From positions 1 to 43,281 of the forward strand of contig NZ_JAURWA010000128.1 of NCBI RefSeq assembly GCF_030655195.1: a DNA stretch of 43,281 bases, read 5' to 3'. The stretch is from Patulibacter sp. Lineage in GTDB: Bacteria > Actinomycetota > Thermoleophilia > Solirubrobacterales > Solirubrobacteraceae. Below, one piece after another: positions 35,865 to 37,518 of this stretch. The notes under the pieces were generated by a model that made no database searches, was not told the DNA's origin, and worked only from the letters and a program-made list of their open reading frames with translations. The position numbers were made by a program, and so were the translations under genes. Numbering within the stretch: position 1 is the first letter of the stretch; each line of letters begins with the position of its first letter.

Positions 35865-37031
35865 TCAGTCCGCCGCGATCGCCGGTGCCGACGCCCGTCG
35901 CACCGGCCGGTCCCGCAGCGCCATCTCCGCGTCGGCCGCGGCGAGGTACCAGCCGAAGGCGCGGTCGACGACCGGCTGCGGGGAGACGAGCTTGAAGCCG
36001 AGGGTCAGCAGGCGCGGCGGGATCCGTGGCATCACGCGTTGGAGCAGCAGGAGCCGGCGGAAGAACGCGGCACGCGTCTTCGAGAACGCCGCGTACGCGA
36101 CCAGGGCCTCGTCGCGGGTCTGCGCACCGTCCAGGACCTTCGCGATCTCGCGCGCCGCGGCGATGCCGAAGAGGAACGCGGTGCGGATGCCCTCGCCCGA
36201 GACCGGGATGCAGTGGCCCGCGGAGTCGCCGCAGAAGAAGACCCCGTCCTCGGCCGCCGGGCGCAGGCGGTGCGGGAACCAGTTGCCCTGGTAGCGGACC
36301 GCGTCGACGTCGAGGCGCCGGGCGACCTCCTGGGTCGGCGCCTTGACGTGGTCGTGCGGGTCGTAGGAGCCGACCCCGACCCGCGACTCGCCGCCGGCCG
36401 GTACGCGCCAGGCGTAGCCGCGGGGGATCACCGAGCGGTCGATCCAGCAGTCCAGCGCGTCGTCCTGGGTCGCGGGATCGACGTCGGGATGGACCTCGAG
36501 GCCCCGGGAGAGCGGGGCGTCCGGTGGCTGGTAGTGCGGCGTGGCGAGCGTGCGGCGCCAGCCCATCGCGTCCACCACGATTGGTGCGGAGACGTCGCCG
36601 CGGTCCGTGTGGACCACGTGGCCGTCGGCCGTGCGGGTCCGCCCCTGGACCTTCGCCGTGACGAACCGCGCATCGCCGCACTGGTCCCACAGCTCGTGGC
36701 AGAGCGTGCGGTAGTCGAAGCTCGTCCAGGTCCACGGCAGGCGGTAGCGCGCGGAGCCGTGGGGGGTCGTGAAGGACATGTGCGGCAGCTCGGAGCGCCG
36801 GGCCTCGTGGATCCCCAGCGCGTCGAGCCACGGGGTCGGCACCGCGCAGGCCGAGGTCTGCCGCTCGCCGATCTCGTAGCGGTCCAGCAGCAGGACGTCG
36901 TGGCCGAGGCCCGCGAGCTCGCGGGCGAGCGCGAGGCCGGCGAAGGAGGCCCCGCAGACGAGGACGTCGGCCGCGTCGCCGTCGATCGACGTGCGCTCGG
37001 CACCGCGGAGCGTGGCGCGCCTGGGACTCAT
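35865..37031 (-). CDS. Geranylgeranyl-reductase-like FAD oxidoreductase
   Basis: 388 residues. The FAD motif is VLVCGASFAGLALARELAG (~23-41), followed by VLLLDRYEIGERQTSACAVP, an element shared with the geranylgeranyl reductase and lycopene cyclase group. Further segments are VVDAMGWRRTLAT, DRSVIPRGYAWRVPAGGESR and FFCGDSAGHCIPVSGEGIRT, the second FAD contact. The group reduces isoprenoid double bonds or modifies lipids at the membrane. A C-terminal ~90-residue helical region may contact the membrane. TAGCCT 7 nt before the ATG indicates a leaderless mRNA. Specific substrate unknown. Confidence 0.85.
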   Translation of the reverse strand: MSPRRATLRGAERTSIDGDAADVLVCGASFAGLALARELAGLGHDVLLLDRYEIGERQTSACAVPTPWLDALGIHEARRSELPHMSFTTPHGSARYRLPWTWTSFDYRTLCHELWDQCGDARFVTAKVQGRTRTADGHVVHTDRGDVSAPIVVDAMGWRRTLATPHYQPPDAPLSRGLEVHPDVDPATQDDALDCWIDRSVIPRGYAWRVPAGGESRVGVGSYDPHDHVKAPTQEVARRLDVDAVRYQGNWFPHRLRPAAEDGVFFCGDSAGHCIPVSGEGIRTAFLFGIAAAREIAKVLDGAQTRDEALVAYAAFSKTRAAFFRRLLLLQRVMPRIPPRLLTLGFKLVSPQPVVDRAFGWYLAAADAEMALRDRPVRRASAPAIAAD

Positions 37032-37052: not shown

Positions 37053-37379
37053 TCACGATCCCGCGGGGCTCGCGAGCGCCAGTCCCACGATGCCCGCCGC
37101 GATCAGGGCGATGCTGACGAGACGCAGGGCCGCGGCCGACTCGCCCAGGAACGCGATCCCGACGATGGCGGTCCCGACCGCGCCGATGCCGGTCCAGACG
37201 GCGTAGCCGGTCCCGACCGGGAGCGACCGCAGCGCGAGGGCCAGGAGCGCCATGCTGGCGACGAGCGCGACGACGAAGGCGACGGTCTCCGGCAGCTTCG
37301 AGAAGCCCTCGGACCGCTTCAGGGCGAGCGCCCAGACCACTTCGAGCAGGCCTGCGGCGATCAGCGAGATCCACGCCAT
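37053..37379 (-). CDS. gdx: Guanidinium exporter, SMR family (Gdx/SugE)
   Basis: 108 residues with four membrane helices, the size of small multidrug resistance transporters. The N-terminus MAWISLIAAGLLEVVWALAL, then KRSEGFSKL, closely follows the Gdx (SugE) signature, with the proton/substrate glutamate at Glu13. Later segments SMALLALALRSLPVGTGYAV and WTGIGAVGTAIVGIAFLGES also match that clade rather than EmrE. Gdx proteins form antiparallel dimers that exchange protons for guanidinium. A guanidine-III riboswitch lies directly upstream, which supports guanidine as substrate. A Shine-Dalgarno (AAGGGA, 37387-37392) sits 7 nt before the ATG and 4 nt after the riboswitch. Confidence 0.95.
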   Translation of the reverse strand: MAWISLIAAGLLEVVWALALKRSEGFSKLPETVAFVVALVASMALLALALRSLPVGTGYAVWTGIGAVGTAIVGIAFLGESAAALRLVSIALIAAGIVGLALASPAGS

Positions 37380-37396
37380 GGTGGTGTCCCTTCGAG

Positions 37397-37437
37397 GCGC
37401 CGTCGTCGTGCCGGGTACGGCGCGTCCTCTCGTCCGG
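37397..37437 (-). promoter_or_regulatory. Guanidine-III (ykkC-III) riboswitch
   Basis: Read on the minus strand the 41-nt element starts CCGGACGAG and contains GCGCCGTACCCGG and ACGGCGC. GCGCCGT (37417-37423) pairs with ACGGCGC (37397-37403) as a 7-bp stem. The leading CCGG (37434-37437) can pair with CCGG in the loop (37411-37414) to make the pseudoknot that defines this class. Sequence, topology and length agree with the Thermobifida fusca aptamer as I remember it. The 3' end is 4 nt from the Shine-Dalgarno of the Gdx gene, which suggests translational control: guanidine binding should free the ribosome site. Confidence 0.88.
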
Positions 37438-37463
37438 GCGGGCCCCATCGGGGTCGCCGGTCG

Positions 37464-37469
37464 ACCGTA
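37464..37469 (-). promoter_or_regulatory. -10 box TACGGT for the riboswitch-gdx transcript
   Basis: TACGGT on the minus strand would start transcription near 37457, about 20 nt before the aptamer. A small hairpin GACCCC-GAT-GGGGCC (37441-37455) lies between them. No clear -35. Confidence 0.45.
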
Positions 37470-37518
37470 GCACCGGGGGCCGACCCCCGCCGCGTCCCGG
37501 ATCGCCCCGCACGCCGCG

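What the first reader, a model, noticed from the sequence alone, without database searches (positions are those of the whole stretch)
37053..37469. Guanidine-III riboswitch controlling a Gdx exporter
The 41 nt at 37397-37437 (minus strand) carry the conserved CCGGACGAG and CCGTACCCGG blocks, a 7-bp stem and a four-base CCGG/CCGG pseudoknot. The gene behind it has a clear Gdx/SugE N-terminus with Glu13. The aptamer ends 4 nt before the Shine-Dalgarno, so control is likely at translation. No guanidine carboxylase or urea genes are nearby, so export appears to be the only local response. The loop between CCGG and the closing stem is shorter, and the 5' linker longer, than in the Thermobifida example I recall.
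Basis: partly seen in the sequence, partly recalled or inferred. Interest (0 to 1): 0.75.

Follow-up and report, generated by a model that had tools for sequence, protein, structure and literature searches.

The report
Short-loop guanidine switch before an exporter
An actinobacterium carries a small RNA switch, almost certainly sensing guanidine, directly in front of a guanidine exporter gene; the kind of switch is known, but this one is a trimmed version that falls below the standard detection cut-off.

Summary
37397-37437 (-) is a guanidine-III (ykkC-III) aptamer: conserved core, 7-bp P2, four-pair CCGG/CCGG pseudoknot. It lies directly before a SugE/Gdx gene with all five Gdx-Clo substrate-site residues that I checked. 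Orthologues answer it: six of six close Patulibacter Gdx genes carry the aptamer just upstream, two of the six reaching the cut-off, and it is the main conserved block of the leader.

The low score reflects a lineage variant: a 7-nt loop (10 in T. fusca) and a 5-nt linker AGNNN (2 in T. fusca). Seven-nt loops make up 17 of 34 aptamers in the class sample (counted by hand) and 0 of 38 readable ones elsewhere in the phylum sample (9-15 nt). Ligand-contacting residues are intact.

Folding gave no support for Shine-Dalgarno release, so the output step stays open: translation or mRNA protection.

In passing: 12 of 24 seven-nt-loop aptamers collected precede a CBU_0592-like membrane protein.

The parts
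37397..37437 (-). Guanidine-III aptamer (41 nt), short-loop type
   Evidence: RF01763 29.4 bits
37434..37437 (-). P1 (pseudoknot) 5' strand CCGG
   Evidence: P1 covaries in the family
37429..37433 (-). ACGAG: A5 C6 G7 A8 G9 in T. fusca numbering; in the crystal structure guanidine stacks on C6 and bonds to G7
   Evidence: PMC5696562
37424..37428 (-). AGGAC linker (5 nt; 2 nt in T. fusca), AGNNN type
37417..37423 (-). P2 5' strand GCGCCGU (includes ligand-binding G17)
37415..37416 (-). A19 C20 of the core
37411..37414 (-). P1 (pseudoknot) 3' strand CCGG
37404..37410 (-). 7-nt loop CACGACG; fourth base G in the place of G29, AC in the place of A30-A33, then G34
   Evidence: the assignment to G29/G34 is inferred from the Rfam alignment
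37397..37403 (-). P2 3' strand ACGGCGC
37438..37457 (-). P0 hairpin abutting the aptamer's 5' end (GCG..CCC GAUG GGG..CGC)
37464..37472 (-). Extended -10-like element TGCTACGGT; would place the transcript start near the 5' edge of P0 (inferred)
   Evidence: GTGCTAC in 4 of 6 Patulibacter leaders, TAGGCT in the other 2 (read by eye); the consensus scan found no sigma-70-type site
37387..37392 (-). Shine-Dalgarno-like AAGGGA
37053..37379 (-). gdx/sugE, SMR-family guanidinium exporter, 108 aa
   Evidence: PF00893 E 3.9e-27; NF008512 SugE 129.1 bits, cut-off 126; E13 W16 S42 Y59 W62

Best explanation
This is a guanidine-III riboswitch of a short-loop subtype in the 5' leader of a Gdx guanidinium exporter gene in Patulibacter or a very near relative. 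Guanidinium binds between G7 and G17, stacks on C6 and locks the third strand into P2, giving a rigid pseudoknot. Export is thereby raised when guanidine is present (ON switch). Shown here: aptamer anatomy, conservation, position, gene identity. Inferred from the family: ligand and ON direction. Open: whether the pseudoknot acts by exposing the start site, by shielding the mRNA from RNase E scanning, or both.
For: RF01763 full-length match, E 9.3e-5 on 181 nt. Core pattern once in the window, 0 of 100 shuffles. All six genomes of the genus with a close Gdx (136 bits or more; own, G002, G004-G007) have the aptamer ending 15-20 nt before its start codon. G001 and G003 have no close Gdx; G001 has no model match and G003's single weak match (23.4 bits) lacks the core. 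In six aligned leaders the aptamer is nearly invariant while the rest has drifted. The Rfam model does not score P1; in 56 of 56 core matches lying inside a model hit P1 pairs 4 of 4, in five combinations, against 0-2 pairs in all 13 core matches elsewhere in the same loci. C6, G7 and G17 are present. Gdx residues E13, W16, S42, Y59, W62 are present, W16 being the mark of Gdx against Qac. An RNase E/G gene is in the own genome.
Against: The Rfam score is below the curated cut-off. Two bases of the stacked A30-A33 segment of the crystal structure are missing. Nearest-neighbour folding gave no consistent change of Shine-Dalgarno access between free and aptamer-folded states (7-nt loops: up in 10, down in 9 of 23). 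No ligand binding was measured.
Confidence: 0.93

Rival explanations
1. Output by translation: the ligand-locked pseudoknot destabilises competing structures and frees the Shine-Dalgarno sequence 4 nt downstream. (Not exclusive with the next.)
For: Closeness of aptamer to Shine-Dalgarno; proposed for T. fusca, whose ribosome binding site is 16 nt away (PMC5696562 Discussion part 1); no terminator found.
Against: Folding shows no consistent opening. P2 ends so near the Shine-Dalgarno that it would fall under the 30S footprint (inference).
Confidence: 0.45
2. Output by mRNA protection: the pseudoknot near the 5' end is an obstacle to RNase E scanning, needing no overlapping expression platform.
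For: Stated for guanidine-III in a 2025 review (PMC12186494, passages, citing Richards and Belasco 2021, which is not held). The inferred start lies at P0, so nearly the whole leader would be P0 plus aptamer. RNase E/G gene present. Fits the absence of a visible platform.
Against: No transcript data; the start site is a guess from a -10-like element; whether RNase E dominates mRNA decay here is unknown.
Confidence: 0.45
3. The short-loop subtype has shifted to another guanidinium compound (for example methylguanidine or a larger one).
For: Bases are lost in the segment that passes from P1 to the core; 16 of 24 seven-nt aptamers sit before something other than a Gdx gene.
Against: C6, G7, G17 and the surrounding core are unchanged; the window's target is a Gdx with the guanidinium-site residues.
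Confidence: 0.07
4. A chance resemblance or a decayed, non-functional copy.
For: Sub-threshold Rfam score.
Against: Conserved as the main block across six leaders; 0 of 100 shuffles; intact pairs and gene.
Confidence: 0.01

Closest known systems
Guanidine-III riboswitch (ykkC-III, RF01763), T. fusca crystal structure 5NWQ
   Same: H-type pseudoknot with P1 4 bp and P2 7 bp, core ACGAG / CGUAC, C6, G7 and G17, SMR exporter as target
   Different: Loop 7 nt not 10 (AC for A30-A33 between the bases placed at G29 and G34); linker to P2 5 nt not 2; Shine-Dalgarno 4 nt from the aptamer, not 16; Rfam score under the cut-off
Short-loop guanidine-III aptamers of the same class and some other actinobacteria (this survey)
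   Same: 7-nt NNNGACG loop (24 of 24); AGNNN linker in 15 loci
   Different: The window's gene is Gdx; 12 of the 24 seven-nt loci precede a CBU_0592-like membrane protein
Gdx-Clo and other SugE/Gdx exporters (PDB 6wk5; that this entry is Gdx-Clo is recalled)
   Same: E13, W16, S42, Y59, W62; phmmer 93.7 bits to 6wk5 and 93.9 to 8vxu
   Different: No difference at the five residues checked

Membership tests
Guanidine-III riboswitch (RF01763) | Score at or above the Rfam gathering cut-off (36 bits) | tested here: not met
   29.4 bits. This is a curation threshold, not an anatomical feature; G006 with the same loop and linker lengths scores 36 and G005 with a 7-nt loop 41.6, both marked over the cut-off.
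Guanidine-III riboswitch (RF01763) | P2 stem (7 bp) closing the core | tested here: met
   7 of 7 pairs
Guanidine-III riboswitch (RF01763) | P1 pseudoknot of four pairs | tested here: met
   CCGG/CCGG; covaries across the family, 56 of 56 inside model hits with four pairs
Guanidine-III riboswitch (RF01763) | Ligand-site residues C6, G7, G17 and core ACGA / CGUAC | tested here: met
Guanidine-III riboswitch (RF01763) | G29 pairing C20 and the base stack A30-A33 before G34 | tested here: inconclusive
   A G is kept at the fourth loop position in 24 of 24 seven-nt loops, but the stack segment is 2 nt, not 4; no RNA 3D model was possible
Guanidine-III riboswitch (RF01763) | Binds guanidine and raises expression | not testable with these tools
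   needs in-line probing and reporters
Gdx/SugE subtype of SMR transporters | Family score over the curated cut-off | tested here: met
   NF008512 129.1 bits, cut-off 126; every Qac model listed is far below its own cut-off
Gdx/SugE subtype of SMR transporters | E13, S42, Y59, W62 and the Gdx-specific W16 | tested here: met
Gdx/SugE subtype of SMR transporters | Guanidinium/proton exchange | not testable with these tools
   needs proteoliposome transport

The most novel reading that the evidence does not exclude
The short-loop subtype is a separate, widely spread lineage of guanidine-III switches that works without an overlapping expression platform, and its second main target, the three-helix CBU_0592-family membrane protein, is an unrecognised guanidinium-handling (perhaps transport) protein.
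Probability: 0.3. Interest if true: 0.65.

Novelty: new variant of a known kind. Interest (0 to 1): 0.33.

Why it matters
It has the shortest guanidine-III loop met in this survey, with the binding residues untouched, so it shows how far the aptamer can be trimmed. It explains why the Rfam cut-off misses true switches in this lineage: own, G002, G004, G007 and, further off, G036, G058 and G077 all score below 36 bits. An aptamer with so little sequence before the ribosome site makes a clean test between translation control and mRNA protection. The same subtype points to a membrane protein family that may belong to guanidine biology.

Tried and rejected
A tie between loop length and closeness to the Shine-Dalgarno was considered and rejected: 11-nt-loop aptamers (L124, L126, L129, L140) also end 0-4 nt before it.

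Conserved Shine-Dalgarno sequestration as platform: not supported. 71 of 75 loci had a usable start; the automatic start or Shine-Dalgarno choices for L061, L086, L107 and L155 look wrong and were left in the counts.

CBU_0592 as a distant SMR protein: the short LLExxWA resemblance gives hhalign probability 4.8%; the AlphaFold model (mean pLDDT 82.9, six sequences) has three helices, not four; the best PDB match has E 1.0. Rejected as homology. ExxW also stands in many CBU_0592 proteins that lack an aptamer: of 30 such loci from the phylum sample none has a guanidine-III core just upstream (one weak, wobble-paired core-like match, about 850 nt upstream of L200, was taken as chance). So the motif is not specific to riboswitch-linked members, and most CBU_0592 genes in that sample show no link to guanidine.

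The gene after gdx (35865-37031, geranylgeranyl-reductase-like) as part of the response: found beside gdx only in the own genome among the 17 loci searched, some of which hold only a few hundred bases past gdx; not treated as part.

Counting limits. One search looked only for loops of 5-8 nt, so the 75-locus set over-represents short loops; that set's filter also demanded four P1 pairs. Of 77 loci brought in by the Rfam model, 17 lacked my core pattern and were not counted, among them strong hits (L131, L132, L142). The pattern demands CCGG/CCGG and so misses other P1 types; its backward control gave 1 match in 399 genomes. At E 0.1 the Rfam search also rang in 3 of 14 control genomes, so weak hits there were not used as evidence.

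Full report
What is there. The 41 nt at 37437..37397 (minus) match the guanidine-III aptamer block by block. The degenerate core pattern occurs once in the window and in 0 of 100 dinucleotide shuffles. Rfam RF01763 aligns full length, 29.4 bits, E 9.3e-5 on the 181 nt searched, but the family's gathering score is 36, and the window scan at gathering thresholds returns nothing. It is the only match at E 0.001 in the own genome, a 198-contig assembly (94.9% complete) of which the window is one whole contig.

Gene. 37053-37379 (-) is an SMR protein (Pfam PF00893) that passes NCBIfam's SugE cut-off (129.1 versus 126 bits) and stays far below the cut-off of each Qac model listed. The best matches among solved structures are the SMR chains 8vxu and 6wk5 (93.9 and 93.7 bits), ahead of EmrE. 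It has E13, W16, S42, Y59 and W62, the residues that PMC7695847 (passages read) places around the substrate in Gdx-Clo; that paper says W16 is conserved in Gdx but Gly or Ala in Qac.

Whose it is.

Conservation. Of the eight genomes of the genus searched (own plus G001-G007), six encode a close Gdx (136 bits or more) and all six have the aptamer ending 15-20 nt before its start codon. G001 has only a distant SMR gene and no model match; G003, 75% complete, has no Gdx match and one weak model match (23.4 bits) without the core. ettA stands divergently next to the leader in the own genome, G002, G006 and G007; in G004 it is about 1.8 kb away, and in G005 it was not seen in the stretch held. In the alignment of six leaders the aptamer is nearly invariant, its linker apart, and the remainder has drifted, save a -10-like GTGCTAC in four and TAGGCT in two (read by eye). 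Two of the six reach the Rfam cut-off (G005 41.6, G006 36); the others give 31.3, 31.0, 29.4 and 23.1 bits.

The variant. I collected 75 distinct aptamer loci. Loop lengths were 7 nt in 24, 8 in 15, 9 in 12, 10 in 11, 11 in 11 and 12 in 2; sought only short loops, so these are not frequencies. Two less biased samples: (1) 399 genomes of the class searched by an exact-core pattern, 33 with a match, 34 places, of which I count 17 with a 7-nt loop, by hand from the listing (backward control 1 match); (2) 396 genomes of the phylum searched with the Rfam model, where 47 loci outside the class were fetched, 38 had a readable core, and their loops are 9 to 15 nt, none shorter. All 24 seven-nt loops read NNNGACG. 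Placing the kept G at T. fusca G29, which pairs with C20 in the crystal structure, leaves AC where the structure has A30-A33, part of a continuous base stack (PMC5696562, Results part 1; the placement follows the Rfam alignment and is inferred). A 5-nt linker AGNNN before P2 occurs in 15 loci, 14 of them with 7-nt loops, all with G38. Fourteen of the 15 belong to genomes labelled same class or closer, and the last is a named Solirubrobacter record. The residues that touch the ligand, C6, G7 and G17, do not change.

Pair evidence. The Rfam model has no pseudoknot, so P1 is an independent test. In 77 loci brought in by the model, 56 core matches lie inside a model hit, and all 56 have 4 of 4 P1 pairs, in five combinations (CCGG/CCGG 35, CCCG/CGGG 10, CCTG/CAGG 6, TCTG/CAGA 4, TCGG/CCGA 1); the 13 core matches elsewhere in the same loci have 0-2 pairs (one search gave 55 and 13 after removal of duplicates). 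Seventeen loci had no core match and are outside this count. Where the linker has two bases, positions 10 and 38, which meet in the triple C15-G38.G10 of the crystal structure, change together: A/A 27, G/G 6, G/A 2, C/G 1, A/G 0 (Fisher on the A and G rows, P 1.7e-5, not corrected for relatedness).

Mechanism. The family binds guanidine and turns genes on (PMC5696562, Introduction and Discussion part 1). For the output step two proposals exist: freeing the Shine-Dalgarno sequence (same paper) and protecting the mRNA from RNase E scanning (review PMC12186494, passages; its source, Richards and Belasco 2021, is not held). I compared predicted Shine-Dalgarno access with and without the folded aptamer in 71 of 75 loci. 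For 7-nt loops access rose in 10 and fell in 9 of 23; for 8-nt, 8 and 5 of 15; for 9 nt or more, 11 and 9 of 33 (changes within 0.05 count as neither). For the window it stayed the same (0.55 and 0.52). This gives no support to simple sequestration, though such folding cannot treat the pseudoknot or the ligand. No terminator was found. The own genome encodes RNase E/G. With a start near P0 (inferred) almost the whole leader would be P0 plus aptamer, which suits the protection model. I give the two equal weight; they are not exclusive.

Local response. No urea/guanidine carboxylase passes its cut-off in the own genome; the partial matches to TIGR02712 look like the biotin-carboxylase and biotinyl parts of other enzymes (interpretation mine; not followed up). 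The ten window proteins scanned and the six show no guanidine or urea gene; not every gene of the window was scanned. Guanidine hydrolase and other degradation families were not searched, so 'export only' is likely but not proved.

Beyond the window. Of the 75 loci, genes behind 7-nt loops are CBU_0592-like in 12, Gdx in 8, other or none in 4; behind 8-nt loops 2, 10 and 3; behind loops of 9 nt or more 0, 30 and 6 (by tblastn to one Gdx and two CBU_0592-like queries). Three of these proteins were scanned and pass NF047864's cut-off of 25 bits (41, 45 and 41.1 bits). BLAST at 1e-6 found no family shared by the ORFs that follow, as chained by a simple rule that also picks up doubtful ORFs. In the phylum at large 25 of 296 genomes have a CBU_0592 match, and 30 fetched loci show no aptamer just upstream, so the link holds for a part of the family only. 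The library holds no paper with the term CBU_0592; other names were not searched. The window's own genome has none. Similarity to SMR exporters was tested and not found.

Verdict. The new part is a coherent short-loop variant, visible only by comparison. I did not see this variant described, but I read only parts: sections of PMC5696562 and passages of PMC7736828, PMC2864571, PMC8492726, PMC12186494 and PMC7266159, from the searches. The validation paper (Sherlock and Breaker 2017) was not listed by any search, Weinberg's supplementary gene table was not seen, and Rfam already accepts some members.

Noticed in passing
L015, L020, L063, L067, L069, L072, L075, L079, L091, L104, L111, L170 (7-nt loop), L070, L089 (8-nt loop): Short-loop guanidine-III aptamers stand before genes for CBU_0592-like membrane proteins (about 80 aa in most, three predicted helices in the one modelled; GFLLLExxW in 8 of 8 aligned, not in L072 and L091); none behind 36 aptamers with loops of 9 nt or more.
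   Followed up: partly
75-locus set; T. fusca positions 10 and 38: Third-strand base 10 and P2 base 38 change together (A/A or G/G) in 33 of 36 two-base-linker aptamers, as expected from the C15-G38.G10 triple; A38 makes a C.A mismatch in P2.
   Followed up: partly
L074, L087: Guanidine-III aptamer 13-15 nt before a hydrolase-like gene in Microbispora and Micromonospora (L087 protein: metallo-beta-lactamase fold PF00753; the L074 protein looks alike but was not scanned).
   Followed up: no
L127, L145, L153: Guanidine-III aptamer before an unidentified hydrophobic protein of about 155 aa.
   Followed up: no
L019 and L033 (G077): The aptamer precedes a short-chain dehydrogenase, while that genome's Gdx (83% identical to the window's) lies elsewhere without an aptamer in the 160 nt upstream.
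   Followed up: partly
L063, L088: Short-loop aptamer and CBU_0592-like gene in MAG contigs labelled Deltaproteobacteria and Syntrophomonadaceae: transfer or mis-binning.
   Followed up: no
L086, L107: Intact short-loop aptamers without a recognised target gene directly downstream.
   Followed up: no
window 35865-37031 (-): Geranylgeranyl-reductase-like FAD protein starting 21 nt after the gdx stop, possibly co-transcribed; seen beside gdx only in the own genome.
   Followed up: partly
G584:C1, G632:C69, G661:C83, G496:C112: CBU_0592-family matches in neighbouring pairs, which recalls two-gene SMR exporters (comparison recalled).
   Followed up: no
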